From Candidatus Babela massiliensis (GTDB taxonomy: Bacteria > Babelota > Babeliae > Babelales > Babelaceae): DNA of 64,000 bases. The notes beneath the pieces are model-generated. The model saw only the letters and a list, made by a program, of their open reading frames with translations, did not search any database and had not been told where the DNA came from. Numbering within the stretch: position 1 is the stretch's first letter; every line of letters starts with the position of its first letter. Below, piece by piece: positions 505 to 40,788 of the stretch. The stretch covers positions 62,001 through 126,000 of the forward strand of contig NC_023003.1 in assembly GCF_000513475.1 (NCBI RefSeq). The letters run 5' to 3'. A program made the translations under genes and the position numbers.

Positions 505-1653
505 TCAGAGGTCAAGTTCGATATATTGACAAGATAAATTTTTATTATTAAGTGTATTATCTATAAAAGAGCGACCCGGAGATGTAACAAAAGTCTGAGA
601 AGCAATAGTAGGAATAAATGAAAGTATGGCATTAAATTTCTCAGAATCAAAATCTGAAAAAAAATCATCGATTAAAAGTATAGTGTTTTTTGCGTTATCC
701 TTATTTTTATTAGATAAGGAAATCTGAGCTAATTTTAAAAGCATTAAAATCATCTTTTGCTGTCCACGCGAGGAGAAAGTACGAGAATATTTGTCTTGAA
801 AAATAATCTTAAAATCGTCAAGATGTGTGCCAAAAAGGGTCTTTTTCCTATTAAGTTCATCTTGAAGTATTGAAGGATATAACTCAATAAATTCTTGAAA
901 ATTTTGTGCATGAGCAATAAGAGAATAAGGTTGAGCGTATTGATATTTAATATCTAGATTGCAACTAACTTCTCTTGAATTGTCAGATAGATTGATAGTA
1001 TCAAAGATTATTTTAGCTTGTTTGCCTATATTTTCAAGAGCTTGAATGCGCAGTTTTTGAATAGTCTTAGAAAGATCGAACAACTTTTCAGACCAAAGAT
1101 TATAAGATTCTTTATCGAATTTAGAAAACAGCAAAGCATTTCTATTTTCCAATACTCTTTTATATTTAGAAATTAAAGAGATATAACTTGAATCATTGAA
1201 CATGATAGTCTGATCTATAAAATTTCTTCTTAAAAGTGGTCCATCTTGAATTAATTTCAAATCATCAGCAGTAACGGTTACAACTTTAAAAATATTATAA
1301 ATATCTTTAAATGAAGAGATCGGTTTTTGATTCAATTTAACGATACGCTTTAGGTTATTTAAAGTAAAAACTATTTGAAGATTATCAGTATCGGTATGAT
1401 TATCAATAAAAGAAGAAACATGAGAAATGCTAGTACCAATAGAAAAATATTCTGCGTCAAAAAGAGCTAATTCAACTGGTAAATGAGTGCGAAAAGAGCG
1501 CAAGTAAGATGAATAATGAAGGGCCTCTAATATAGAGCTCTTACCGCTACCATTAGGCCCTGTAATAAAAATAATGTCATTTTCAATCCCAAAAGTAAAA
1601 GTTTGAGAATCAAAACATCTAAAATTCTTTAATTTAAGAGAAGTTACTTTCAC
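505..1653 (-). CDS. recF: DNA replication/repair protein RecF
   Basis: RecF is an SMC-like ATPase that loads RecA at single-strand gaps through RecFOR. Visible motifs are the Walker A loop GPNGSGKSS (about residues 32-40), the ABC signature SSRGQQKMIL near residue 293 and the Walker B stretch ILLIDDFFSDFD near residue 324. The length of 382 aa is normal for the family. The start is GTG, 11 bases after the dnaN stop, so the two genes are almost certainly co-transcribed. The dnaN-recF order is the classic replication-origin arrangement, but dnaA is not upstream here. Confidence 0.95.
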   Translation of the reverse strand: MKVTSLKLKNFRCFDSQTFTFGIENDIIFITGPNGSGKSSILEALHYSSYLRSFRTHLPVELALFDAEYFSIGTSISHVSSFIDNHTDTDNLQIVFTLNNLKRIVKLNQKPISSFKDIYNIFKVVTVTADDLKLIQDGPLLRRNFIDQTIMFNDSSYISLISKYKRVLENRNALLFSKFDKESYNLWSEKLFDLSKTIQKLRIQALENIGKQAKIIFDTINLSDNSREVSCNLDIKYQYAQPYSLIAHAQNFQEFIELYPSILQDELNRKKTLFGTHLDDFKIIFQDKYSRTFSSRGQQKMILMLLKLAQISLSNKNKDNAKNTILLIDDFFSDFDSEKFNAILSFIPTIASQTFVTSPGRSFIDNTLNNKNLSCQYIELDL

Positions 1654-1664
1654 GACTACAATAA

Positions 1665-2786
1665 TTAGTTAATAGAAGGTGAAACTGGCATTACCAAGTA
1701 AGTTATCCTATTTTGATCATTCTCATGTTCAAAAATTATAGGACTTAAACTACTTTTTAGATAAAACTGAATTTGCTCATTATTAAAGGCTTGAAGGCCA
1801 TTTAAGAGATATGGAGCAAAAAACTTAATATCTACTTTTAAAGGTAAAGCTTGAGTAAGCGAAATCTGCTCATCAAGTGAACCTACCTCTTTGTTATTAA
1901 TAGCAACTTTTAAAAGTTTATCTTCAAAGTAAAAAGAAGTTGGAACAAATTGTCCTGATAATAAACAGGCCGAGCGCTTTAAAGTCTTCAAAAACATTGA
2001 TCTATCAATTGAAGCTGGGTAGAATGTAGATTTATCCAAAATTGTTTGATAGTGTGGAAATTGATCGGCAAGTAATTTAGTAAAAAAGTTAAATAATTCA
2101 CCTGAAAAAACAAGTTGATTAGAACAGATTCCAAGAAATATATTTTTATCTTGTGAAGTTTCTAAAATCTTTTTAAGTTCATAAACGGCCCGTCTTGGTA
2201 AAAGCCAAGATTTGTTTCCTTGATATTTGGTATTAAAAGAACATATTTGAGCAAGTGAATGTCCATCTGTTGTAGTCATAAAAAGTGAATTATCTTTTAT
2301 TTCTAAAAATAAACCATTTAAAGCAGGATTAGCATTATTTTGCGGAATTAAAAATACTACACTTTCAAGCATGCTTAAAAGAACGTTAGCATCAAGATGC
2401 ATAAGATTTTCTATTCTTTCAGGAAAAGCAGGAAACTCTTCAGCTTCTTTAATATTTAAAGAAAGGCTAAATGAGCTAGATTGTAAATTAAGTTGTTGCT
2501 TTGTTAATGAACAGTAAATAGGGCCTTGCAGTTCTTTTACTACATCAAAAATTCTTCTTCCTGGAACTAAAAAGGATTCAGGTTCTCCAAAAGAACTTTC
2601 AATTAAAGAACAACTAGATTGTAGACTAATTTCTAAATCAGTACTTTTAAGTATGAGTTCTTTGTGACCAACTTGAAAAAGTATAGAAGAAGTGGCATCA
2701 ATTGCAGTACGCTTCGAGCAAATTGGTTGCATAGAAGAAAGTAAACTTAAAAGAGACTTTTGATCGATAGTAAATTTTTTTTCCAT
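1665..2786 (-). CDS. dnaN: DNA polymerase III beta sliding clamp
   Basis: DnaN forms the ring-shaped clamp that tethers the replicative polymerase and other DNA enzymes to DNA. The 373-aa length and three-domain beta-clamp pattern fit. Recognisable segments are LVPGRRIFDVVKEL in domain 1, the FLEI/TDGHSLA stretch in domain 2 and the C-terminal YLVMPVSPSIN, which matches the typical (V)MPM end with V replacing M. It is the first gene of the dnaN-recF pair. Upstream is a 274-base AT-rich gap shared with a divergent ANK gene; no convincing DnaA box cluster is seen there. Confidence 0.95.
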   Translation of the reverse strand: MEKKFTIDQKSLLSLLSSMQPICSKRTAIDATSSILFQVGHKELILKSTDLEISLQSSCSLIESSFGEPESFLVPGRRIFDVVKELQGPIYCSLTKQQLNLQSSSFSLSLNIKEAEEFPAFPERIENLMHLDANVLLSMLESVVFLIPQNNANPALNGLFLEIKDNSLFMTTTDGHSLAQICSFNTKYQGNKSWLLPRRAVYELKKILETSQDKNIFLGICSNQLVFSGELFNFFTKLLADQFPHYQTILDKSTFYPASIDRSMFLKTLKRSACLLSGQFVPTSFYFEDKLLKVAINNKEVGSLDEQISLTQALPLKVDIKFFAPYLLNGLQAFNNEQIQFYLKSSLSPIIFEHENDQNRITYLVMPVSPSIN

Positions 2787-8663: not shown

Positions 8664-9455
8664 TTAAGATCGTGGATGGGATTTTTTATAATCTTTTATA
8701 ATGTCATCCACTAAAGAACTATTGCCTTGATTTAAATTAAGAGATTTAGTTTTATTAATTAGTTTATAATTACTAGTAAATGAATTTTTAATAGATAAAG
8801 CAGCTTGATAAGATAGCCTAAAAATCTTTTGCAAACCAAAATCATTATTATTTTTAAGATAAGTATTAAACATCAACTTTATGTCTTCTAAGTTGTTTTT
8901 TATCCGAAATTTTCTTTTTAATTTGCAATTTAAATTATTTTTACTTTTATTTATTGATAATTTTATATAATCAAAATTAATATATATATCGTTTTTCTCT
9001 AGTTTAATCAAAGTTTTTGCAGGAATATTTAATACAGTAGTTAGATAGAATATTAAGAAATTTCTTAGTTCTAAAGAACTTATCTTTTGATTTCTAAATT
9101 TTAAAATAAATTTACTAATTACGAAATCTTGAAATTTGCTATCAAATTGAGGCTCATAAATTCTACCATGAAAATTTATAGAATAATTTTTCAGTAAAAA
9201 TAAGGCAAAAGATTTAATAGAAAAGTACTTTCTCTTAATGGTACTAGAACTTAGATTTTTGATTTTTAAAAAGTTTATAAACTCTGAGAAATCTTTTTTA
9301 GATAAATTATTAATATTACTTTTATTAACAAAACCTAAAAATTGTTCTGTATCTTTTAAATAAAGAGAAAGAGTAATTGGTGAATATCTTTGAGTATCTT
9401 TTAAAAAGATATTAAATTTTTTTAAGATTTCTTCGATATTTTCTTTAATAACCAT
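8664..9455 (-). CDS. Xer-like tyrosine recombinase homolog lacking catalytic residues
   Basis: The N-terminal half shows the SAM-like core-binding domain of tyrosine recombinases (SPITLSLYLKDTEQFLGF near residue 25, then SSSTIKRKYFSIKSF). The C-terminus DYKKSHPRS matches the DKAHPRA tail of XerC/XerD. The catalytic Arg in the region aligned to GLRxSEL is replaced (IPAKTLIKL), no HxLRH box is seen, and the block with the nucleophilic Tyr is missing just after GNSSL. At 263 aa it is shorter than the usual ~300. It lies 17 bases after proS. It probably cannot cleave DNA; a binding-only role or early decay are both possible. Confidence 0.7.
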   Translation of the reverse strand: MVIKENIEEILKKFNIFLKDTQRYSPITLSLYLKDTEQFLGFVNKSNINNLSKKDFSEFINFLKIKNLSSSTIKRKYFSIKSFALFLLKNYSINFHGRIYEPQFDSKFQDFVISKFILKFRNQKISSLELRNFLIFYLTTVLNIPAKTLIKLEKNDIYINFDYIKLSINKSKNNLNCKLKRKFRIKNNLEDIKLMFNTYLKNNNDFGLQKIFRLSYQAALSIKNSFTSNYKLINKTKSLNLNQGNSSLVDDIIKDYKKSHPRS

Positions 9456-29904: not shown

Positions 29905-30840
29905 ATGAACAAATTGAAACATTTATATATATTATTATTATTAGTTCTATTTTTTAATAATAATATTATCTCTATGGGACAACCAGATTATATGAAAGTT
30001 GAACAAGAGTCTCCATTGTTAAGACTCCCTAATGAACTTATTGTAAATATTATCAATCAAGTTATTTTGCCACAGGTTAAAGAAGCTATTAATAATAGTT
30101 GGAATAATATATTTAGTGAGCCTAAATCGATAAAAATTAATCTTCAAGATGATCTCCAAGGTCTTAGATGTACTTCTGTGCATTTGTATGATTTAATTAA
30201 TGATAATTTCAATTCACCATCTTTAAAAAATTATTTAAATCAATTAGTAAAAGATTTAAAACAAAAACAATTTGATGAATTGTTTGAAGCATTAAAACAT
30301 CAATCTATTGAACAATATAAAGGCTTACCTAAAGATCAACTTAATGAAGCTTTAATTAAGATATTGAAGAAACCTATAATCTTAGTGCATGAAGAAGATT
30401 TAAAAACCGTAGTTAAATTAATACTTGCAGGCGGTACTTATGTTAATGATAAAAATTTTTATGGTTATACAGCTTTAATGAAGTCATCACGTCATGGATA
30501 TAAAGAGATAGTAAAAATACTAATAAAAGTAGATGCTGATATTAATGTTCAAAATAAATTTGGCAGTACAGCTTTAATGATGGCATCTGAATTTGATTAT
30601 AAAGAGATAGTAGAATTACTTATTGAATCAAAAGTAGATATCAATATTAAAGATTATGATGGCTATACAGCTTTAATGCTGGCATCTGGAAATGGTCATA
30701 AATATATAGTAGAAATGTTAATAAAAGCAGGTGCTAATGTTGATGCTAAAAACAATGATGGCAATACAGCCCTAATGATAGCATCTGAAAAAGGTTATAA
30801 AGATATAGTTGAGATATTAAAAGAAGCAGAATCTAAATAA
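29905..30840 (+). CDS. Secreted ankyrin protein, subfamily B, left border of island
   Basis: The N-terminus MNKLKHLYILLL marks subfamily B. A signal peptide (ends IISM) is followed by the segment LRLPNELIVNIINQ (F-box-like), the helix region SLKNYLNQLVKDLK and LDQ-type DQLNEALIKIL. Four near-consensus ANK repeats then follow (YGYTALMKSS, GYTALMLASGNGH). The 311-aa product ends EILKEAESK. Its last ~80 bases and the DNA after the stop are repeated in inverted orientation at the gene 38779-39792. AAAGG precedes the ATG. Confidence 0.88.
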   Translation: MNKLKHLYILLLLVLFFNNNIISMGQPDYMKVEQESPLLRLPNELIVNIINQVILPQVKEAINNSWNNIFSEPKSIKINLQDDLQGLRCTSVHLYDLINDNFNSPSLKNYLNQLVKDLKQKQFDELFEALKHQSIEQYKGLPKDQLNEALIKILKKPIILVHEEDLKTVVKLILAGGTYVNDKNFYGYTALMKSSRHGYKEIVKILIKVDADINVQNKFGSTALMMASEFDYKEIVELLIESKVDINIKDYDGYTALMLASGNGHKYIVEMLIKAGANVDAKNNDGNTALMIASEKGYKDIVEILKEAESK

Positions 30841-31117
30841 AAATTAAGAAGGCCTAGGAAATAAAAGCTAGGCCTTTAAAAGACATGAATATTAAAGTAA
30901 AAAAACAAAATATATCAAATATAATAAAAATATTATATTTAAAAGAATTATGAATATAAGAGCAAGAAGTTAAAGATTAATGAAATAATATTAAAAATTA
31001 ATAAAAATGTTCTTAAATTTAGAAATAAGAAAGATAATTTTTGTGCGAAATTTTTTATTTTTTATAAAAAAAAGTAAATTTCGTGAAATTGTGTAGTCTT
31101 AACCTTGTGATGTCTGT
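30760..31117. repeat. Left arm of ~360-bp inverted repeat
   Basis: This arm begins inside the last ANK repeat of the gene ending at 30840 and continues to TGTCTGT at 31117. By eye it matches the reverse complement of 38500-38859 at roughly 94 percent in the non-coding part. It includes an imperfect AT hairpin near 31054-31084. Confidence 0.9.
30849..30880 (+). terminator. Terminator after subfamily-B gene
   Basis: Stem AAGGCCTAG (30849-30857) pairs with CTAGGCCTT (30868-30876), followed by a short T/A tail. The counterpart in the right arm has lost several pairs. Confidence 0.65.
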
Positions 31118-31858
31118 TGTGAGTATTAGCTTATAATTATTATAAAAATAAATTAGAAAAAGAAAATAGATCTGATATTTGAATCAGATCTATTTATTAA
31201 AATTATTTCTTATGATTTCCTCAATATTTCAGATCTTTTAACAGCCCGATAAATTAATATACAGGTTATAACAGAATGTAAATAGTAAATACTATAATAT
31301 ATTCCTATATTATAGTATCATGACAAAAATGATCCAATATTAAATATAATGATAAATCCTATTCTTTCCATAGCCTTAAAAATATATCTAAGATTATCAG
31401 GCGCCTTATCTAAATATTCTAAATTTATACTGGGTATAAATTTATCTGCATATAAAAAAGTATAAAAATAACAACAAGTAGCTGTTATACTTAATATTGT
31501 AGGAAAAATAATGCTTAAATGGAACTCTAATCTACTAACTAGAATTCCACTACCATTATTACCATGAACAAAAGCTCTAGCTATCCACTTGCCATTACTA
31601 ATTTTCTTGATAGCAATATAATTTTATTATGCTCAATAGATAATTGTAGTTGTTCAAAAGATTTGAACGATTCATAATAATGCAGGAGCTTTAGGATACA
31701 TTAAATAATCTAAGAAATGATCTTGAGAAAATTATAGACGAAGAAGTAGAAAAAGAAGTAAAAGAATAAAATAGATAAGTAGAACATTTATATAAATCAT
31801 TGCTTTTTGTCTATTATAATGTACAATATAATATATAAAGATATACACTAAAGACCTT
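31118..31858. other. Gene-poor left part of the island
   Basis: The stretch has no intact gene. It contains a hairpin with arms AAATAGATCTGAT/ATCAGATCTATTT (31164-31195) and a 12-bp hairpin at 31289-31318. It also holds a start-less minus-strand frame (31318-31623) and a 24-codon plus-strand tail ending LEKIIDEEVEKEVKE at 31769. It looks like decayed accessory DNA. Confidence 0.5.
31318..31623 (-). pseudogene. Start-less membrane protein remnant
   Basis: A frame of about 101 codons with no ATG, GTG or TTG near its upstream end, which lies directly after tandem TAA codons. The product would read GKWIARAFVHGN, a hydrophobic stretch SIIFPTILSITATCCYFY and a second hydrophobic stretch near the end. 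Two membrane segments are likely. Family not recognised; probably a fragment. Confidence 0.35.
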
Positions 31859-32148
31859 TACAAAATATACAAAGCTCCAGAATTTATTGAATGGATTAAG
31901 AATGAGACTTTAAAATCTCAATTACAAATAGATCAAAGAATCTCTAATATAACGACAATGGTTATTTCGGAGATCATAAAGATGTGGGCAACGGTATTTT
32001 TGAGTTACGTTGGGTAAATGGCAGAAGAGTGTATTATACTTATATTGCTGAACTAGATATTCTATTACTTATAGGAGGTAATAAAAATGGACAAGACAAA
32101 GACATTAAAAAAGCAGAAACCATCGTCAAAAAATATCTTAATTTATAA
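31859..32148 (+). pseudogene. Decayed HigB/RelE-like toxin
   Basis: Two frames together spell a phage-derived Gp49/HigB-like addiction-module toxin. The first part (YKIYKAPEFIEWIKN) runs from 31859. After a frameshift near 31946-31957 the second part continues NGYFGDHKDVGNGIFELRW, VYYTY, then LLLIGGNKNGQDKDIKKA and ends KKYLNL-stop at 32148. The usual Met before YKI is a CTT codon. The loss of the start and the frameshift make it inactive. Its end overlaps the antitoxin gene by 62 bases. Confidence 0.75.
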
Positions 32149-32422
32149 AGTAAAGCCTGATATAAAGTCTGAACCTTATGAAGTTGGAGAAATAGTTTTA
32201 CAAGAAGGATTTCTTGGTAAAGCTATAGCTGAATGCCTAATAAATAATGACCCAGAGGGTGTGCTTGAAGTTATTAGCATATTTATCGATCTATTAAATA
32301 AATCACAATTAGCTAAAGATGCAGGTATGAATCGCTCAAGTTTATATCGTGCCTTAAAAGGAAATCCTACTATTAAAACAGTAGCTAAAGTACTTCATAG
32401 TGCAGTTTCGTCTAATAAATAA
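32087..32422 (+). CDS. HigA-like antitoxin (addiction module antidote)
   Basis: The 111-aa product has a C-terminal helix-turn-helix: KSQLAKDAGMNRSSLYRAL followed by NPTIKTVAKVLHS, the pattern of the antidote partners of Gp49/HigB-like toxins. AGGAGG lies nine bases before the ATG. The upstream toxin is a pseudogene, so this is an intact antitoxin without its own partner. It may still repress its promoter or protect against a related toxin elsewhere. N-terminal 20 residues are Lys-rich. Confidence 0.82.
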   Translation: MDKTKTLKKQKPSSKNILIYKVKPDIKSEPYEVGEIVLQEGFLGKAIAECLINNDPEGVLEVISIFIDLLNKSQLAKDAGMNRSSLYRALKGNPTIKTVAKVLHSAVSSNK

Positions 32423-32531
32423 TCTTAGTTATTTTCTCTCCATTAATAGGTGATAGACTAGATTTATGACAACGTTTGAATCTTGTAATCACAATCATAA
32501 TTAATATAAATAAAAACATTTAAGGGACAAA

Positions 32532-32756
32532 ATGTTTAAAAATTTTATAATTACTAGCTTAAAAATTTTATTTATTATTACTACGATTAAAGTTGGGGTA
32601 TTTGCCTTAACTTTAGATACAATTCCAATGTATTACTTTAAAAAAAGTATTATTAATTTTTTACCTAATTTAGTTACTACCTTTTATTATGTAATATATG
32701 TAAGTGTATTTATATACATTATTACTTTAATTATAAAAAATAACATTGGTAAGTAA
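32532..32756 (+). CDS. Small membrane protein, island family
   Basis: A 74-aa product with two hydrophobic segments (about 7-28 and 48-68) and a basic C-terminus IITLIIKNNIGK. AGGGA precedes the ATG (AAGGGACAAAATG). No known family was recognised. The C-terminal pattern resembles the products at 32773 and 33949, so the island encodes a set of related small membrane proteins. The next gene starts 16 bases after its stop. Confidence 0.65.
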   Translation: MFKNFIITSLKILFIITTIKVGVFALTLDTIPMYYFKKSIINFLPNLVTTFYYVIYVSVFIYIITLIIKNNIGK

Positions 32757-32772
32757 TAATAGGATAATAAAA

Positions 32773-32997
32773 GTGTATAAGAAATATTTTGATTTTATAA
32801 ATAACAAAGCTTTGCAAAGTTTTATTAATATCTTAGCAGCTTTATCGTTAATAGTTTGGGGATTAATACTTTTAATTGATACTAATAATCCAATAATCTA
32901 TAAAGCAGATCCTTTATTAGATCAAATAAGATTATTAATTTTTGTATCTAGTGTTACCTGGATAGGTATAAAGATCATTAAGAAAAATTTATTATGA
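32773..32997 (+). CDS. Small membrane protein, island family
   Basis: GTG at 32773 is preferred as start because AGGA (32761-32764) lies eight bases before it; a TTG 27 bases earlier lacks a ribosome site. The 74-aa product has two hydrophobic segments (NILAALSLIVWGLILLI and LLIFVSSVTWIGI) and ends in KIIKKNLL. That end is similar to the C-termini of the products at 32532 and 33949. Its stop overlaps the next start (ATGA). Function unknown. Confidence 0.62.
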   Translation: MYKKYFDFINNKALQSFINILAALSLIVWGLILLIDTNNPIIYKADPLLDQIRLLIFVSSVTWIGIKIIKKNLL

Positions 32998-33179
32998 TAA
33001 ATAATATTATAACATATATCAAGATAGCTCTGGCCACTATATTTCATATTTTGTGGCAGCTTGTCAAAGCTATATACTGTCTTCTTTTCCCACCAGTATG
33101 GATATTTTTTATACTAAGATGGATTATTAGAGAACTTCGATGTTGTTGTTGTAATAATAATTATAAAGACAACATGTGA
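32994..33179 (+). CDS. Small Cys-rich membrane protein
   Basis: A 61-aa product coupled to the previous gene by ATGA. One long hydrophobic segment (about 5-46, LATIFHILWQLVKAIYCLLF then FFILRWII) is followed by RCCCCNN and a short polar tail. Four adjacent cysteines after a membrane segment could be lipidated or bind metal, which is speculation. Family not recognised. Confidence 0.55.
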   Translation: MINNIITYIKIALATIFHILWQLVKAIYCLLFPPVWIFFILRWIIRELRCCCCNNNYKDNM

Positions 33180-33271
33180 AAGATAAAGAAGCACCCTCCT
33201 AGGCTTTTGTGCTAGTATATTTTAAGTATTATACTAATTAGTACAATCAAATTCATTTAGGGGGACAAATG
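33180..33271 (+). promoter_or_regulatory. Leader repeat copy 1
   Basis: This ~90-base leader matches 33857-33951 closely, from AAAGATAAAGAAG through CCTAGGCTTTTGTGCTAG and TATTATACTAATTA to TTTAGGGGGACAAATG. It contains the palindrome TACTAATTAGTA (copy 1 only is perfect) and ends in the strong ribosome site AGGGGGAC. It probably carries a promoter and operator. Confidence 0.65.
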
Positions 33272-33556
33272 AAAAAAAAATATCATGTTTGGGTGGAATA
33301 TTCTCTAATAGCAATAGCTATTCTTATATTTTTATATAATTATGATAGTAATACAATTAATAAGATATGTAACCATATAGCAAGACATTGGTTCTATTTA
33401 TTAAGCTTGTGGAGTATTAATGTTACTATTAAAGATTTAGATGACAAACAAGAAAAATTAATTAGTGATAAAGATGATCTTGAATATGCTATAGAAGAAT
33501 TGGAAAATAGAATTATAGTATTAGAATCTAAATTAAATAATAAACAGAGGGATTAA
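33269..33556 (+). CDS. Small membrane protein with C-terminal coiled coil
   Basis: The 95-aa product has a hydrophobic segment (about 10-25, SLIAIAILIFLYN), a second weaker one near 42-52, and a C-terminal coiled coil (DDKQEKLISDKDDLEYAIEELE onward, about 57-90). The AGGGGGAC ribosome site is excellent. Phage holins or spanins can have this shape, but no family was recognised. Immediately downstream, on the other strand, is a phage gene tail. Confidence 0.6.
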   Translation: MKKKYHVWVEYSLIAIAILIFLYNYDSNTINKICNHIARHWFYLLSLWSINVTIKDLDDKQEKLISDKDDLEYAIEELENRIIVLESKLNNKQRD

Positions 33557-33745
33557 TCCCTCTGTTTATTTTCTTCATAAGTAATTACTTTATCTAAATT
33601 TCTTACAGCAGTTTGTGCTTGCTTAACATTACCTGAAAGAGCACTACTTATATAACTTCCATAATATTTTCTAAAAGTAGGTGATTTTATAGCTATTTGT
33701 AGAACCCTATTTGCTTCACCTAAAGGTAATGTTGCACCAGCTTAG
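33557..33745 (-). pseudogene. C-terminal fragment of a phage virion-like protein
   Basis: The frame reads GATLPLGEANRVLQIAIKSP, then TFRKYYGSYISSAL and ends NKQRD-stop; it has no start codon and begins right after an in-frame TAA. A KSPTFRKYY-type tail is what one expects at the end of internal virion proteins like the one truncated at 34195. It is best read as the displaced C-terminus of that gene, cut off by an inserted segment (33746-34208). Confidence 0.5.
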
Positions 33746-33856
33746 GTAAGAGGGGTCTAATTTATCGACCCCTTTAAATATTAGATTATTACAGACTCAA
33801 ATGAATTAATACTTAAAAATTTAACCAACTTTAGACTAGTGACTAAATAATAGTTA
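33746..33856. other. Junction spacer with hairpin
   Basis: It contains the stem AGGGGTC/GACCCCT (33751-33757 with 33767-33773), the most G/C-rich hairpin of the island interior. It lies exactly where the phage gene fragment stops. Confidence 0.5.
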
Positions 33857-33951
33857 TAAAGATAAAGAAGTAAACCCCCTAGGCTTTTGTGCTAGCGTAT
33901 TTTAGGTATTATACTAATTAATATAATCACATTCATTTAGGGGGACAAATG
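33857..33951 (+). promoter_or_regulatory. Leader repeat copy 2
   Basis: Near-identical copy of 33180-33271 with about ten differences. The TACTAATTAGTA palindrome is changed to TACTAATTAATA, whereas the AGGGGGACAAATG end is unchanged. Confidence 0.65.
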
Positions 33952-34209
33952 GAAACAGAAAAAAAATATTATGGTTTTATGACTAAAAAACAATATATTA
34001 TTTTGAGTGTAGTGATATATGCAGCTATAGCTTTATATTTGGGCTCAGAGTTTTTAAATTCACTGAGCCTAGATTCTATACAAATATTACAAACCATAGG
34101 ATGGTTAATTTTAGCAAAAATAATTAATTTATCTTATTGGATAATTGTATTAGGTATAATTACTTATGTTATAACAACAATTATCAGAAAAAATCTATTT
34201 TCTAAGTAA
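33949..34209 (+). CDS. Small membrane protein, island family
   Basis: An 86-aa product with three hydrophobic stretches (about 15-35, 45-60 and 61-78) and C-terminus ITTIIRKNLFSK, related to the ends of the products at 32532 and 32773. AGGGGGAC lies upstream, in a duplicated leader. It overlaps the minus-strand phage gene by 15 bases at the 3' end, an unusual tail-to-tail overlap that fits insertion into that gene. Function unknown. Confidence 0.6.
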   Translation: METEKKYYGFMTKKQYIILSVVIYAAIALYLGSEFLNSLSLDSIQILQTIGWLILAKIINLSYWIIVLGIITYVITTIIRKNLFSK

Positions 34210-35541
34210 GTCTTTCAGTATATCTTTACCACCTACACCTAAAGCTCCAATGCCTGCTCCCACTGGCCCGCCAGCTAACCATCCAGCACCAGCACCCAGT
34301 AATGGAGCTCCAAAATTACCTATCAATTTTCCACTCCCCGCAAGTGCAGCTGTAACCCATGGATCTTGACCAGGAGGAGTAGGTTTTGCTAAATCTTCTC
34401 TGAATTTTTCCGAGATTTTGTCTAATTTTTTTTCCATTCTAGCATCAACTTGTTCTATTAAATCTAAGGGAGGGATACCTTTATTAGAATTCATAACATC
34501 TTTTAATGCTTCGTTATATGATAAAGCTATATTACTTAATCTTTTTAAATTTGCTATTACTCTTGCGCGACCCTGAGGTGATTGACTTAAATTTGGAATA
34601 GTTTGCAGAAATTGTTCTATTTCATAGTTAGAAACTCTACCGCCAAAATAAGTCTTTGCATCTCTTAAAAAGTTTGCTGCTATTTTCTGAAATTCTTGCG
34701 ATTCTGGGCTTTTTAAATTAGAAATATCCATACCAATATTTGAAAGAAATTCTAAATAACCTGGACTATTTAATTTTCCGCTTTTATCTAATTCTTCCAT
34801 TCTTCCTAAGTCATGCAATTGTTCTCTTGCTGCTTTAACTCTATCCAAAATCTCTTTACGCTCAGCTTTAGTATCTTTAAAAGCCTCTCTACGCTCTCTA
34901 ATAGCTTCAGCACGCTCTCTTGTAGATTCTTTTTTTTCAAATTGCTCACGTTGCTGAATCATTTTTTCTATTTTTAATCTTTGATCTGGAGTTATTCTAG
35001 GATTTTTCAATACTTCTTGCAAAGATTTCATAGGTTGTACTTGTGGTATATTTTCTAATGGCGCATTTCCTGATGCTTCACTTAAAGGTGTACCTTGTTG
35101 AGCAACAGGTTCTCCTCTAATAGCAGATAATACTTGATCTAATCCTGTATTTCCAGCAGATCCAAGATAATTTTTAAGCACAACAGATTGTAAAGATTCA
35201 GGAAGTCCTTGTAGCTGTGAAGCATCTTGTGGAGATATTCCTAATGCTTGTAATCCTGACGCCGTATTCTGCATCTGTCGTTGTCCAGCTTGTTCTTGAT
35301 GCTGCTGCTTTAAAAGTTGATTAAGTGTACTTGCGTCAAGACCGCCTAAAGATTGAGCTTGCTGGGAATTTAAGTGGGGAAATAAAGCCTGTAGACCTTG
35401 CTGTCTTTGTTGCATTTGCTGTTGTTGCTGTTTATTGGTAATAAGATTCTGCACCAAGGCTTGTAATCCCTGGCTTAGTCCAGATCCTAATCCAGCTCCT
35501 ATATTACCTCCTAATGAGGTTTCATTAATAACTTGTGGCAT
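34195..35541 (-). CDS. Phage internal virion-like protein, C-terminally truncated
   Basis: The start at 35541 (MPQVINETS) has GGAGGA seven bases upstream, inside the last codons of the preceding gene. The ~448-aa product has a Gly-rich N-terminus (GGNIGAGLGSGLSQGLQAL) and a Gln-rich stretch. A long charged helical region (about 200-260, KKESTRERAEAIRERREAF) and a Gly/Ala-rich hydrophobic C-terminus (GAGAGWLAGGPVGAGIG) follow. Such layout is common in podovirus-like ejection proteins; the exact family is not identified. The end lacks the usual tail, which seems to lie at 33557-33745. Base composition is richer in G and C than the ANK genes. Confidence 0.6.
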   Translation of the reverse strand: MPQVINETSLGGNIGAGLGSGLSQGLQALVQNLITNKQQQQQMQQRQQGLQALFPHLNSQQAQSLGGLDASTLNQLLKQQHQEQAGQRQMQNTASGLQALGISPQDASQLQGLPESLQSVVLKNYLGSAGNTGLDQVLSAIRGEPVAQQGTPLSEASGNAPLENIPQVQPMKSLQEVLKNPRITPDQRLKIEKMIQQREQFEKKESTRERAEAIRERREAFKDTKAERKEILDRVKAAREQLHDLGRMEELDKSGKLNSPGYLEFLSNIGMDISNLKSPESQEFQKIAANFLRDAKTYFGGRVSNYEIEQFLQTIPNLSQSPQGRARVIANLKRLSNIALSYNEALKDVMNSNKGIPPLDLIEQVDARMEKKLDKISEKFREDLAKPTPPGQDPWVTAALAGSGKLIGNFGAPLLGAGAGWLAGGPVGAGIGALGVGGKDILKDLLRK

Positions 35542-35542
35542 T

Positions 35543-36094
35543 TTAACTTCCTCCAAATAATTTTAATAGAGCCATTAAACCTCCTCCAGTAGATCCAGTT
35601 GCTCCACCTAATAATAATGGCAAAATAGTTCCTAGTCCCTGACTTAATCCACTTCCAGTAGATTCTAAGAATCCAGGTTGTCTAGGAAAATATACATTCT
35701 CAAAGGATGGTTGGGTAGCTAGTCCAAGCAAACTACTTAATGTATTTTGATTCATGTTTTGTTGTTGTATTCCATACTGACTTCTCAATCCAGCTAATCC
35801 CTGTTCTAGTCCGGAAGCAGCATTGCCTAAAGCTCCTTGAAAAGCAGAGGAATTTTGTCCTCCTCCCATAGCTGTAAATCTTTCTGCAAGACTAGGTACA
35901 GTTTGTGTAGTAAACTGATTACGAGCTTGTTGTTCTATAGGCGCAAATCCTTGATCAGCTCCGGTTCTAGGATTCTGCAATAAAGATAATATCTGTTGTA
36001 TTGATTGATTCTGTAATTGCTGCTGTGGTTGAGTTAAGCGTTGAAATTGTTGTGTTCTAGCGGGAGTTCCGCCCAATATATCTGAAAGTGCCAT
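35543..36094 (-). CDS. Phage virion-like protein, Gln/Gly-rich
   Basis: A 183-aa product with a Gln-rich N-terminus (RLTQPQQQLQNQSIQQIL), a central helical region with GGGQNSSAFQGALGNAASG and a Gly-rich end (LLGGATGSTGGGLMALL). This shape is typical of small podovirus-like neck or internal proteins next to tail genes. It lies in an operon with the genes on both sides (nine bases to the upstream stop, downstream start two bases before its stop). No specific family was identified. Confidence 0.55.
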   Translation of the reverse strand: MALSDILGGTPARTQQFQRLTQPQQQLQNQSIQQILSLLQNPRTGADQGFAPIEQQARNQFTTQTVPSLAERFTAMGGGQNSSAFQGALGNAASGLEQGLAGLRSQYGIQQQNMNQNTLSSLLGLATQPSFENVYFPRQPGFLESTGSGLSQGLGTILPLLLGGATGSTGGGLMALLKLFGGS

Positions 36095-36102
36095 AATAAT
36101 CC

Positions 36103-36321
36103 CTATTCTTTTTCTTTTTTCTTCTTTTTGCTGTCACTGATATTAAGCCCTTTAGCTACTGCGGCTTTTTTACTGGTTATTTTTTCGCCACCGTTCTTAT
36201 TTTTAGTAAGTTCACCACGAGATAGTTCATCTAATTGCTTTGCAACTTCTCTTCTATCTCTTTCGGTATATCTTTTTTTAGGTTTTGTAGATTTTCTTCT
36301 AAATGGTACTTTTCTAGCCAT
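36103..36321 (-). CDS. Small basic phage-like protein
   Basis: A 72-aa, very basic protein (RKSTKPKKRYTERDRREVAK) with a C-terminal GEKITSKKAAVAKGL and Lys tail. It resembles small DUF6496-type proteins found near structural genes of some tailed phages, where a KQAIAIGLSEA-like motif is common. GAGGAG precedes the ATG. It sits between the tail-like gene at 36335 and the Gln-rich gene at 35543. Confidence 0.55.
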   Translation of the reverse strand: MARKVPFRRKSTKPKKRYTERDRREVAKQLDELSRGELTKNKNGGEKITSKKAAVAKGLNISDSKKKKKEKE

Positions 36322-36334
36322 GATTTTCTCCTCA

Positions 36335-36874
36335 TTAACTTTGTATATATTCTAAAATAACATAACAAACATTAAAACTAGATCTATTTGATATAGTAGT
36401 AATATTAACGTTAGTATTATCAATGCTTATCTCTATATTAGTGGCTCCAGAAACAGATGCATAAGGTATAGGTATATAATTAAGTCCTGTAGTATCTGAC
36501 GCAGTAGCATATATCTTTGTAAATGTTGTAGCGCTTGTACAAGTGATACCATGTGCAACAGATATGGTTGTAGTGTTGGGTAAAGCCCCAAAGTTAATAA
36601 CCTTTCTGTAAACAGGTCTTTGGGTTGGCGTGGTAGAACTTAAAGAATTTAAGTTGGGGTTGGGAAACCATTGTTGACTTGTAATCATCTCAAATTCATT
36701 AGTATACTGCGCAGTTTCTTTAACGTTAATAACGTTAGACATAAGATTAAGATTTTGGTACATACGCACTAGTATTTCTTTTAATTCTGGTGATAAATTA
36801 CTAGCATAAATAATACTAGGATCCCAGATATTCGTAGTAGGTACATAAGCACCAAATTGTGATGATGACGCCAT
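36335..36874 (-). CDS. Phage tail-like beta-rich protein
   Basis: The start MASSSQFGAY at 36874 overlaps the stop of the upstream gene (TAATG), so translation is likely coupled. The 179-aa product has a helical first part (SPELKEILVRMYQNLNLM) and a Thr/Ser/Ile-rich beta-type second part (NTTTISVAHGI, TNIEISIDNTN). The mix fits a minor tail or receptor-facing component. It was read as coming from the same virion operon because of spacing and base composition. No named family was recognised. Confidence 0.6.
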   Translation of the reverse strand: MASSSQFGAYVPTTNIWDPSIIYASNLSPELKEILVRMYQNLNLMSNVINVKETAQYTNEFEMITSQQWFPNPNLNSLSSTTPTQRPVYRKVINFGALPNTTTISVAHGITCTSATTFTKIYATASDTTGLNYIPIPYASVSGATNIEISIDNTNVNITTISNRSSFNVCYVILEYIQS

Positions 36875-38391
36875 TATTGCAACCTCGAATCTGTAGCTTG
36901 TGTATGTAATAAAATACCTTCTAAAATAAATGGAGACCAAGCACTAGCCATATTAGAGATCTGATCATTACTCATATAAATATATATCTGAATGCATTCA
37001 CCATAAGTCTGAAAATATATAGTGTGCCATAACCTTTCTTGATATTGCTCTAAAGGATAATATCTTGGATTATATGGAGAAGTTTCTAAAATATTATTAC
37101 CAAGAATAGAATTTGTAGCTATACCTTCACCGATCATAGATATATTAGTTGAAGAAGGAGAGTAATCTACCGTTACTTGACCATCACTTGTTTTTTCTAC
37201 ACCAAAATCTATCTTAGCTAAATAAACATTTCTTGATTGATTAACATATGGATTCCACTGCTTGCTTCTAATTCTTATATTAGATACTCGCGCTAAAGTT
37301 CCTCCACCTAAATATGATCCAGATATATCAGGAGCTTTTAAGATAATATTATTAGCATCTGTAACTGCATAAACTTGATATATAGTATTATTTGCTGATA
37401 GGCCCACTGCATTTTCTAATGCAACATAATCTGACACATTTAAATTGTGATTAATAACATTTAAATCAACATAACCTACTCCCAAAGTAGCGCTAGGTAT
37501 TGTCATATTAATAACTGCCATAGATGGAGCATTTCTTGTTATATTGGGATCAAGTGTAACCACAAAACCATTGGGCGTGCCTGCTAATATTACTCTTTGT
37601 TGTGCTTCTCTTAAGCCACTTATCCAAGTAAAATTTGCTTCCTGCCAAGTAATATTACTAGTTGCCCATACACTATCAAGTTGCTGCTCAAAATAACCAA
37701 AAACAGTAAAACAATCATCATTTATTGCCCAAGAACCATTTTGATAATTATATACAAGAACTTGATTAGGAAAGTTCTGAGTATTTGTAGTACTATTATT
37801 CATATAAGACCAATAAACAGTTTCCTGTTGATAATCTCTTATGCCACATGTTCTTGCTTGTTCATCATTTTCTACTTTAAAATCAAATATAATATTAGGT
37901 ATCTTGCTATCGATACGTTGAACGTTTGAACCATTACAAGCGTGTACACCAGTATTTCCAATAGTTAATATATTAGTATCAAATGGAACTGTAGAGAATG
38001 TAGATTGCGATCCCAGCTCTGTATTTAATTTCTGCCAAACGAATGGAAGTACTTCATTTCCAGTATATGCTAATTCCCATGTGGATCGCTCAAAATAGAC
38101 AATTAATCTATCTTTGATGAATTCAGCACTAATAATCTCTTCTTCTGTTGTAGCGTCTATAAATCCTGCTCCATCAGCAACCTGTCCGCCAGTAGTCTGA
38201 TTAGGCTCTAGCCATGCATTTGTTGCAAAAGGGCTTCCATTATGTGAATATCTACATCTGTTTTTATAGTTAGTATAGGTAGTTCCATCAGTCTCAATTG
38301 TATCTAGTAAAATTAATCTATTCTTAAAAGGTAAAATAATTCTGGCAGTTTGAACAAAATTACCAGCAGTTAAAAATACTGTTACTGCACT
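36874..38391 (-). pseudogene. 5'-truncated phage tail/neck structural gene
   Basis: The frame stays open for 505 codons from just inside a TAA at 38392-38394 to the stop at 36874, but no ATG, GTG or TTG occurs before an internal ATG at 37803. The upstream part encodes clear protein in the same frame (LPFKNRLILLDTIETDG, RLIVYFERSTWELAYTG, GVHACNGSNVQRID, NQVLVYNYQNGSWAI). The pattern resembles P22 gp10-like DNA-stabilisation or tail-tube proteins, by recollection only. The N-terminus is lost close to the right arm of the inverted repeat. Translation from 37803 would give a 309-aa fragment. Confidence 0.65.
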
Positions 38392-38499
38392 TTATTTCCG
38401 CTTAAGACAATATTTTCAGAGCAAGGAAAAAGGGTGTGAATAATGTAAGTCATTTACTATTTTTTAGTATCGACCTCTTCATGTCTGTAATCTACTCAT
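38392..38499. other. Right junction of the island
   Basis: The non-coding stretch between the truncated phage gene and the inverted-repeat arm. It includes most of a perfect 10-bp hairpin at 38481-38508 (ATGTCTGTAA ... TTACAGACAT), whose right side enters the repeat arm. Confidence 0.5.
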
Positions 38500-38859
38500 T
38501 ACAGACATCACAAGGTTAAGACTACACAATTTCAAGAAATTTGCTTTTTTTTGTAAAAAAATAAAAAATTTAGCACAAAAATTATCTTTCTTATTTCTAA
38601 ATTTAAGAACATTTTTATTAATTTTTCATATATTTTCATTAATCTTTAATTTCTTGCTTTTATATTCATAATTCTTTTAAATATAATATTTTTATTATAT
38701 TTGATATATTTTGTTTCTTTACTTTAATATTAATGTCTTTTAAAGACTCAACTTTTATTTCCTAGGTCTTCTTAATTTTTATTTAGATCCTGCTTCTTTT
38801 AATATCTCAACTATATCTTTATAACCTTTTTCAGATGCTATCATTAAAGCTGTATTGCC
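38500..38859. repeat. Right arm of ~360-bp inverted repeat
   Basis: Reverse complement of 30760-31117 with roughly 94 percent identity by eye in the non-coding part. It spans the 3' end of the ANK gene at 38779-39792 and about 280 bases downstream of it. Confidence 0.9.
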
Positions 38860-39792
38860 TTCATAATCTTTAGAATTAACATTAGCACCTTCATTTATTA
38901 ATATTTTTACTATATCTTTATGACCTTTTTTAGATGCTACCATTAAAGCTGTATCATTATTAAACGTACTTTTAGCATCAATATCAGCACCTTTATCTAT
39001 TAATAGCTCTACTATATCTTTATGTCCATTGCTAGATGCAAGCATTAAAGCCGTAAAGCCGTATTCATTTTTAGTATTAATACTAGCACCTTTATCTATT
39101 AATATTTGAACTATATCTTTATGATCATTTATAGATGCCCGCATTAAAGCTGTAAAGCCATTGTTATTTTTAGTATTAATACTAGCGCCTGATTTTATTA
39201 ATATTTCTACTACCTCTTTATATCCCCCATAAGAAGCCTTCATTAAAGCTGTATTGCCACCATATTGACTTTTAGAATTAACATCAACACCTGCTAATAT
39301 TAATTTAACTGTTACTTTGAAATATTCTTTAGATTTAGGATCTTTATTTAATATATTAATAAAGGCTCTATTGAGATCTTCAGTTGATAAACCTTGGACT
39401 TTATATTCTTCAATAGATTTAATTTTTAAATTTTCAAAGAGTTCATCAAAACGTTTTGATTTTAACTCTTTTATTAATTGATTTAAATAATTTTTTAAAG
39501 ATGGTGATTTTGAAGCAACATTCAATACATCTTTAAATTGTTGAGATACAAGAGCTATTTCTTGTAAATTGATTTTCTTTGGTTGTTGAAATATATCATT
39601 CCACTTATTAATAGTTTCTTTAACTTGTTGTATCACAGTTTCATTGATAATAGCTATCATAAGTTCTGCAGGTAGACTTAATAATTGAGACTCTTGTTCA
39701 GTTACCATATAATCTTGATTTTCCATTGAGATTATATTATTCATAAATAGAATTGATAACAATATTATATATAGATGTTTTATTTTATTCAT
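38779..39792 (-). CDS. Secreted ankyrin protein, subfamily B, right border of island
   Basis: The mirror partner of 29905-30840. The 337-aa product has MNKIKHLYIILL, signal peptide ending IISM, LSLPAELMIAIINE (about residue 38), the SLKNYLNQLIKELK helix region and DLNRAFINIL. About six very regular ANK repeats follow (KEYGFTALMLASSNGHKDIV type). It ends EILKEAGSK, nearly the same as its partner (EILKEAESK). AAAGGAT precedes the ATG. Confidence 0.89.
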   Translation of the reverse strand: MNKIKHLYIILLSILFMNNIISMENQDYMVTEQESQLLSLPAELMIAIINETVIQQVKETINKWNDIFQQPKKINLQEIALVSQQFKDVLNVASKSPSLKNYLNQLIKELKSKRFDELFENLKIKSIEEYKVQGLSTEDLNRAFINILNKDPKSKEYFKVTVKLILAGVDVNSKSQYGGNTALMKASYGGYKEVVEILIKSGASINTKNNNGFTALMRASINDHKDIVQILIDKGASINTKNEYGFTALMLASSNGHKDIVELLIDKGADIDAKSTFNNDTALMVASKKGHKDIVKILINEGANVNSKDYEGNTALMIASEKGYKDIVEILKEAGSK

Positions 39793-40152: not shown

Positions 40153-40788
40153 ATGCAATATCCCAAAATACAAACCTTATGGAAGCGCCATCTTAATGGT
40201 CCGCATAGGGGTAAAATTATAGAAGGTTCTTACTCTGAAAAAGAGTTTGAAAATATAGTCCATTGGAGTATCAGTGAAAAAATTGACGGCACTAATGTTC
40301 GCATAAATTATGATCCAATTAGTAATCAGATTACATTTAAAGGTAAAAGTGATGATTCAAAACTTCCGCCTATTCTTGAGGAATATCTTCGTTCACATTT
40401 TACTCTTGAACTTATGCAATCAGCATTTGCTAATCAAGACCATATAACACTATATGGCGAAGGATTCGGCGGTAATATACAAGCTGCAGGACCCTTTTAT
40501 AAAAAAGAAGCAGGTTTCATACTCTTTGATGCAAAAGTAGGCCAAGTGTGGTTAGAAAGAGATGCTATTGAAAAACTTGCAACTAAACTTCAAATACCTT
40601 CAGCTCCAGAGTTAGGAGTAATGACTAAAGAGGAAGTAATTAATTTTGTTAAATCTAAACCAAAGAGCATCGTGTCCCAGCAGCCTTATCAAATGGAAGG
40701 CATTATTGCTAGATCAAAGCCATTAATATTCCATCCGGATGGACATCCTATAATGTGGAAACTTAAAGTACGCGATTTTGACGTTTAA
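40153..40788 (+). CDS. RNA ligase, Rnl2-like nucleotidyltransferase core
   Basis: The 211-aa enzyme carries all nucleotidyltransferase motifs of the RNA ligase family. Motif I is EKIDGTN with Lys43 as the adenylated residue, motif III is LYGEGFGG (100-107), IIIa is GFILFDAKV, IV is MEGIIAR and V is WKLKVRDF (Lys203 and Lys205). It would join RNA ends or repair nicks using ATP. No C-terminal domain beyond the catalytic core and no kinase or phosphatase partner is adjacent. GGGG lies before the ATG. It is a good match to stand-alone ligases, and its location beside the phage-bearing island may suggest a viral source. Confidence 0.88.
   Translation: MQYPKIQTLWKRHLNGPHRGKIIEGSYSEKEFENIVHWSISEKIDGTNVRINYDPISNQITFKGKSDDSKLPPILEEYLRSHFTLELMQSAFANQDHITLYGEGFGGNIQAAGPFYKKEAGFILFDAKVGQVWLERDAIEKLATKLQIPSAPELGVMTKEEVINFVKSKPKSIVSQQPYQMEGIIARSKPLIFHPDGHPIMWKLKVRDFDV

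What the first reader, a model, noticed from the sequence alone, without database searches (positions are those of the whole stretch)
30760..38859. Island bounded by a ~360-bp inverted repeat made from two ANK genes
Positions 30760-31117 and 38500-38859 are inverted copies (about 94 percent identical by eye in the non-coding part) covering the ends of two subfamily-B ANK genes. The ~7.4 kb between holds no ANK genes but a TA remnant, small membrane proteins and phage virion-like genes. The DNA could invert by recombination between the arms, or the island may have been captured when two ANK copies recombined. A foreign element framed by host ANK genes is not a standard prophage design.
Basis: partly seen in the sequence, partly recalled or inferred. 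Interest (0 to 1): 0.82.

Follow-up and report, generated by a model that had tools for sequence, protein, structure and literature searches.

The report
Phage patchwork at chromosome replication terminus

Summary
The inverted repeat is real: 30692-31117 and 38502-38927 are 92.3% identical (93.5% in the non-coding part), and the similarity stops sharply on the inside. It is not a simple duplicated ANK pair. Gene A (29905-30840) is the outlier of its family at its 5' end, but its last repeat and 3' flank match only gene B (38779-39792), so that segment was copied between the two loci. The copy stops inside a 28-bp inverted repeat, 38481-38508 (ATGTCTGTAATCTACTCATTACAGACAT), which I identify as the probable chromosome-dimer resolution site (dif). 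Related genomes carry the same kind of site beside an orthologous XerA-like recombinase, at the GC-skew switch; here, too, skew switches at the island (fit 94 kb; island 93.1-100.5 kb; opposite switch 655 kb of 1118 kb). The island is a patchwork: dead or copied host pieces with homologues at 202, 792 and 812 kb, plus four consecutive phage tail-module genes with 67 related IMG/VR loci, the first lacking ~300 codons. The genome matches Babela massiliensis, published as having no phage genes. Inversion is possible but untested. 'Island framed by ANK genes' is correct but secondary to 'island at a probable dif'.

The parts
29905..30840 (+). ANK gene A (311 aa), chimeric: outlier 5' part, 3' end shared with gene B
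   Evidence: first 450 nt 76-80% to all five paralogues, last 99 nt 91% to B (69-83% to the others)
30692..31117 (+). left arm of the inverted repeat (end of gene A plus 277 nt of 3' flank)
   Evidence: 92.3% identical to the reverse complement of 38502-38927
31110..31125 (+). partial dif-like site ATGTCTGTtgTGAGTA (one half-site and most of the centre), then divergence
   Evidence: sequence; alignment
31155..31538 (-). dead copy of a membrane-protein gene (homologous segment beside gyrB at C1:201.7 kb, 79% DNA)
31860..32085 (+). broken toxin reading frame upstream of the antitoxin (HigB/HI1419-like by reading, not by a search)
   Evidence: interrupted frames
32087..32422 (+). HigA-like antitoxin (PF21716 dnstrm_HI1420); second copy at C1:792 kb, 86% DNA
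32532..34209 (+). five small membrane-protein genes, two with an 86-nt repeated leader (33195-33280, 33875-33960); parts copied at C1:812-814 kb, 83-96%
34195..35556 (-). phage tail-module gene 4 (453 aa); shortened homologue (352 aa) at C1:814-815 kb
35543..36094 (-). phage tail-module gene 3 (183 aa)
   Evidence: 62 IMG/VR loci, up to 48% identity
36103..36321 (-). small basic protein (72 aa) inside the phage module; weak DUF6496 match below cut-off
36335..36940 (-). phage tail-module gene 2 (201 aa)
   Evidence: 67 IMG/VR loci, up to 66% identity
36877..38391 (-). phage tail-module gene 1: C-terminal 505 aa of a ~796-aa virion protein, frame open, 5' end missing
   Evidence: 64% to L034, whose full ORF is 796 aa
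38459..38480 (+). possible degraded third copy of the arm end, in direct orientation (14/22, binomial p about 0.001)
   Evidence: (I20)
38481..38508 (.). probable dif: ATGTCTGTAA-TCTACTCA-TTACAGACAT
38502..38927 (-). right arm of the inverted repeat
38779..39792 (-). ANK gene B (337 aa), typical member of the local ANK family

Best explanation
The locus is the replication terminus of the chromosome. The right edge of the island is the probable dif site (38481-38508), where I infer that the single catalytically intact Xer-type recombinase found in this genome (XerA-like, C1:13.66-14.61 kb) resolves chromosome dimers. DNA has accumulated at this spot: a phage tail-module fragment and several copied host pieces lie against the site. 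The inverted arms are a by-product. Most likely a broken or stalled end inside gene A's last ANK repeat paired with the homologous repeat of gene B, copied B's 3' end and flank as far as dif, and stopped there, leaving a partial dif on the left and the intact one on the right. Shown: the chimeric gene A, the sharp arm ends at the site, the site's conservation at the skew switch in relatives and its nearness to the recombinase there, the patchwork content, the truncated phage gene. Inferred: that the site is a working dif, that breakage and copying at the terminus made the arm, and that B was the donor.
For: Mosaic: A/B last repeat 91% and 3' flank 93.5%, while A's first 450 nt are 76-80% to all and B is 87-92% to four other local paralogues; flank unique to these two places. 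Terminus: sampled stretches give the best two-breakpoint skew fit at 94,001 and 655,000, almost exactly antipodal in 1,118,422 bp; gene orientation agrees around it. Site: a rule derived from this genome and G004 only (28 bp, ATGTC...GACAT with at most 1 mismatch, at least 9/10 paired arm positions) hits 2 of 13 regions around recombinase orthologues (G008 C1:2564, G012 C12:18700) and nothing in 286 kb of background; skew is +0.13/+0.05 left and -0.09/-0.17 right of the G012 site, +0.14 and -0.12 for G008. A similar site lies 266 bp from the recombinase in G002, others near skew changes in G009 and G098; G004's site is 2 kb from its recombinase and within about 8 kb of its skew change. Recombinase: R, K, HxxR, H and Y align with XerA 5hxy; the XerC-like paralogue lacks Arg I and the first His. 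Patchwork. Phage.
Against: No recombination activity has been shown. The exact site is found within 3 mismatches at a sensible place only in G004 among 100 relatives (two other hits are coding), so it diverges faster than most dif sites. Perfect hairpins are common in this window. The site is 87 kb from the recombinase here, and six or more recombinase regions gave no clear site. Skew resolution is about 10 kb. The direction of the ANK copy cannot be proved.
Confidence: 0.62

Rival explanations
1. Element integrated by Xer (IMEX-like): a circular phage or phage-related element carrying a dif mimic was inserted at dif by the host recombinase, leaving an intact dif on one side and a modified one on the other, and has since decayed.
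For: Intact site on the right, partial site on the left, no integrase gene inside the island; Legionella LME-1 leaves exactly an intact and a modified dif (PMC9765430); phage genes lie inside.
Against: The two sites are inverted, not direct, repeats, which simple integration does not give. Related phage contigs (0.89 Mb) carry no convincing site (two 8/10 chance-like hits). The phage gene is cut off about 90 nt from the site, so no whole element is present.
Confidence: 0.14
2. Invertible segment: recombination between the inverted arms (RecA) or between dif and the partial site flips 31118-38499 and alternates what lies beside genes A and B.
For: Arms of 427 bp with identical runs of 57, 57 and 54 nt in inverted orientation.
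Against: No reads or second strain; no invertase gene in the segment; genes A and B point into the segment from outside, so flipping would not switch their promoters. The centre of the site is also oriented differently in G008 and G012, so orientation is no evidence.
Confidence: 0.12
3. Ordinary paralogous ANK pair: an old inverted gene duplication whose 3' ends were later homogenised by gene conversion; the island was inserted between them by chance.
For: Both genes belong to one local family of at least six; conversion explains a local high-identity tract.
Against: A is not B's sister gene, the shared flank has no counterpart at the other paralogues, and the tract ends exactly inside the dif-like site.
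Confidence: 0.2
4. The 28-bp inverted repeat is only a transcription terminator or a protein-binding palindrome, and its position is a coincidence.
For: More than a dozen perfect palindromes with 11-bp arms exist in this window; it lies between convergent transcripts.
Against: The class has shared ends in several genera and occurs near the Xer gene and at the skew switch in at least three other genomes, without a hit in 515 kb of background.
Confidence: 0.22

Closest known systems
dif/XerL of Legionellales, with the mobile element LME-1 (PMC9765430)
   Same: Single recombinase; ~28-29 bp site with uninterrupted inverted arms of 10-12 bp; at the skew switch; not adjacent to the recombinase gene in L. 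pneumophila; occupied by phage-like DNA
   Different: No experiment here; the island is a patchwork fragment with inverted, not direct, sites; the recombinase looks XerA-like
Archaeal XerA/dif (PMC2958812)
   Same: Best solved-structure match of the recombinase is XerA 5hxy; archaeal XerA works without FtsK in vitro, and FtsK is reported missing in B. massiliensis (PMC4378268)
   Different: Here arms are perfect 10-bp repeats around an 8-bp centre (or 11-6-11), while archaeal arms are imperfect; host is a bacterium
Uncultivated ~35-40 kb tailed phages of IMG/VR (L034, L054 and others)
   Same: Collinear tail-module genes, about 38-66% identity
   Different: Only four genes plus one small ORF remain here, the first cut at its 5' end
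Prophage
   Same: Phage virion genes inside a bacterial chromosome
   Different: No capsid, terminase or integrase gene and no direct att repeats

Membership tests
dif/Xer chromosome-dimer resolution | ~28-bp site of two inverted recombinase arms around a short centre, once per chromosome | tested here: met
   one place in 1.118 Mb at up to 3 mismatches
dif/Xer chromosome-dimer resolution | Site at the replication terminus (GC-skew switch) | tested here: met
   here; in G004, G008, G012, G002
dif/Xer chromosome-dimer resolution | Tyrosine recombinase with a complete active site in the genome | tested here: met
   C1:13663-14613, R-K-HxxR-H-Y present; below NCBI's equivalog cut-offs for XerA, XerC and XerD
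dif/Xer chromosome-dimer resolution | Canonical XerC/XerD dif consensus | tested here: not met
   no canonical site; so at most a single-recombinase type like difSL, difH or Legionella dif
dif/Xer chromosome-dimer resolution | Recombinase acts on the site; loss causes segregation defects | not testable with these tools
   Needs experiment
IMEX (element integrated by host Xer) | Element flanked by dif or dif-mimic sites in direct orientation | tested here: not met
   the partial left site is inverted relative to the right one
IMEX (element integrated by host Xer) | Free form of the element carries a dif mimic | tested here: inconclusive
   none convincing in related IMG/VR contigs, but these are not its own free form
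Prophage | Near-complete set of phage modules with att sites | tested here: not met
   tail module only, first gene truncated
Invertible DNA segment | Both orientations in one population | not testable with these tools
   No reads available

The most novel reading that the evidence does not exclude
Babeliales (Dependentiae) use a single-recombinase, FtsK-independent XerA-like dif system, and their dif is a recurrent landing and copying site: ends at dif prime on neighbouring ANK repeats, so the terminus both captures phage DNA and reshuffles secreted ANK genes. The phage fragment would tie an uncultivated phage group to a bacterial host in a closed isolate genome.
Probability: 0.3. Interest if true: 0.78.

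Novelty: new variant of a known kind. Interest (0 to 1): 0.6.

Why it matters
I found no paper in the held library that describes a dif site for this phylum. If right, it gives a testable chromosome-segregation system in bacteria reported to have lost FtsK, moves the likely origin of B. massiliensis from dnaA to about 650 kb, corrects the statement that the genome has no phage genes, anchors an uncultivated phage group to a host in a closed genome, and suggests a link between events at the terminus and the diversification of ANK effectors.

Tried and rejected
Canonical dif consensus in window and genome: none above background. Site orientation as evidence for inversion: looked suggestive (G000 against G004), dropped because G008 and G012 of one genus also differ. 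G019 and G032 motif hits: G019 lies inside tsaD, G032 inside a likely coding stretch, so chance. Viral pattern hits L196 and L101-L103: unrelated or coding. GTDB scan with the tail protein: none, but only two short peptide patterns were used, so weak; with the major head protein: four MAG contigs of unrelated phyla, two of them about 35 kb, which look like free phage contigs and say little about host. Terminal inverted repeats of a linear element, or a composite transposon: rejected, the repeat runs outward into host genes and no transposase was seen. tRNA and Rfam: nothing relevant.

Full report
OBSERVATION. Aligned, 30692-31117 and 38502-38927 are 92.3% identical over 427 columns, and the non-coding 30841-31117 / 38502-38778 is 93.5%. 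Outside, the same two genes fall to 65% with gaps; inside, similarity ends at once except for the bases TGAGTA. The flank has no further copy in the 1,118,422-bp genome.

WHICH GENOME. One contig of 1.118 Mb with dnaA near base 1, about 26% GC in the window, packed with ANK genes and carrying an MNT-HEPN pair. This matches Candidatus Babela massiliensis (PMC4378268), an amoeba parasite of the Dependentiae; the identification is an inference. [quoted passage not shown]

THE ARMS ARE A COPY, NOT A GENE PAIR. Six related ANK genes of this subfamily lie in the window. Gene B is 87-92% identical to the four others over the first 450 nt; gene A is 76-80% to all five. Yet A and B share 91% of the last 99 coding nt and 93.5% of 280 nt of 3' flank, where the others align only at background level. 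So a segment of about 430 bp passed from one locus to the other in inverted orientation, with the outer join inside homologous ANK repeats. I take B as donor because the intact site is on B's side; this is inference.

THE INNER END IS A PROBABLE dif. The arm ends inside ATGTCTGTAATCTACTCATTACAGACAT (38481-38508). Palindromes alone mean little here, so I tested it. One relative, G004, has the site with 2 mismatches in the arms, intergenic, 2 kb from a Xer-type recombinase gene and within about 8 kb of its skew change. The orthologous recombinase occurs in 15 of 101 genomes of the order. A rule made from G000 and G004 only was applied to 13 regions around these recombinases: it hit G008 and G012 with perfect arms, and nothing in 286 kb of background. 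In both, GC skew changes from plus to minus at the site. A looser look found AAGTCAACAATTCCTAATTTGTTGACTT 266 bp from the recombinase of G002, and related sites in G009 and G098 near skew changes. The looser pattern was written after seeing these, so its zero hits in 515 kb of background are supportive only; several recombinase regions gave no clear site. In our genome the best two-breakpoint fit to skew in the sampled stretches is 94,001 and 655,000, and the island is at 93.1-100.5 kb. Of the Xer-like genes, only the XerA-like one keeps all catalytic residues: the XerC-like gene at 267 kb has lost Arg I and the first His, and the ORF at window 8664-9455 keeps only the N-terminal domain.

THE ISLAND IS A PATCHWORK. 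From the left: a partial dif (31110-31125); a dead copy of a membrane gene whose homologue lies beside gyrB (79%); a broken toxin frame and a HigA-like antitoxin with a second copy at 792 kb (86%); small membrane genes with a repeated leader, copied in part at 812-814 kb at 83-96%; then phage genes. The 812-kb locus also carries a shortened version of the last phage gene, with ParA, MNT-HEPN, a serine-recombinase fragment and a YhcG nuclease nearby. The two loci probably descend from one element or from copying between them.

THE PHAGE PART. Genes at 36877-38391, 36335-36940, 35543-36094 and 34195-35556 are collinear with IMG/VR contigs of up to about 40 kb, up to 66% identical. Two of the proteins were searched in GenBank phages with tblastn and gave no hit. 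The first gene lacks about 300 N-terminal codons, but its remaining 505 codons are open, so the insertion is probably not old. Among 101 genomes of the phylum only this one has the tail gene. The related phages encode a major head protein (PHROG 1357) and their full tail-module protein 1 matches virion structural PHROG 3287.

MECHANISM. The terminus, where forks meet and dimers are resolved, is a plausible place for recurrent breaks (general knowledge, not tested here). I propose that ends there were repaired by copying from homologous sequences, one product being the inverted arm that stops at dif, others being the host copies and the phage fragment. This accounts for the inverted arms, their stop at the site, and the mixed content. 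It is not proved. Xer-mediated integration would explain the partial/intact pair of sites but not their inverted orientation or the missing phage genome; RecA inversion is allowed by the arms but has no evidence.

KNOWN SYSTEMS. The closest are Legionella dif/XerL, whose site also has uninterrupted inverted arms and is used by the phage-like element LME-1 (PMC9765430), and archaeal XerA/dif, which lacks FtsK (PMC2958812). The site works like, and is probably, a single-recombinase dif; activity is untested. The island is not a prophage and not a demonstrated IMEX.

LIMITS. No activity data, no reads, no sister species; skew was sampled, not read whole; the organism name is inferred.

Noticed in passing
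window 505-2786: recF and dnaN lie 62 kb from dnaA, close to the skew-defined terminus; the published origin at dnaA conflicts with the skew fit (origin about 650 kb).
   Followed up: partly
window 8664-9455: 263-aa ORF with only the N-terminal SAM-like domain of tyrosine recombinases and no catalytic-domain match; with the XerC-like gene at C1:267.4 kb (Arg I and first His lost) this suggests decayed XerC/XerD.
   Followed up: partly
L034 2780-3747, L083 2701-3927, L045, L096, L099, L076 and others: The major head protein gene of the related phages is split by inserts at several different codons in about twelve contigs; no Rfam family matches at the gathering score in six of them. Possible unclassified introns or inteins.
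   Followed up: partly
window 33195-33280 and 33875-33960; C1:812604-812699 and 813702-813800: 86-nt leader (..CTAGGCTTTTGTGCTAG..AGGGGGACAAATG) repeated before small membrane-protein genes at two loci, 84-91% alike.
   Followed up: partly
window 30850-30880 and 38745-38775: The hairpin after the ANK stop codon is perfect in arm A and changed on both sides in arm B, partly compensating.
   Followed up: no
window 40153-40788: RNA ligase family protein (PF09414) beside ANK gene B.
   Followed up: no
L217, L219 (GTDB MAG contigs of Simkaniaceae and Lokiarchaeota): About 35-kb contigs with the same major head protein sit in MAGs of unrelated phyla, probably free phages binned by mistake.
   Followed up: partly
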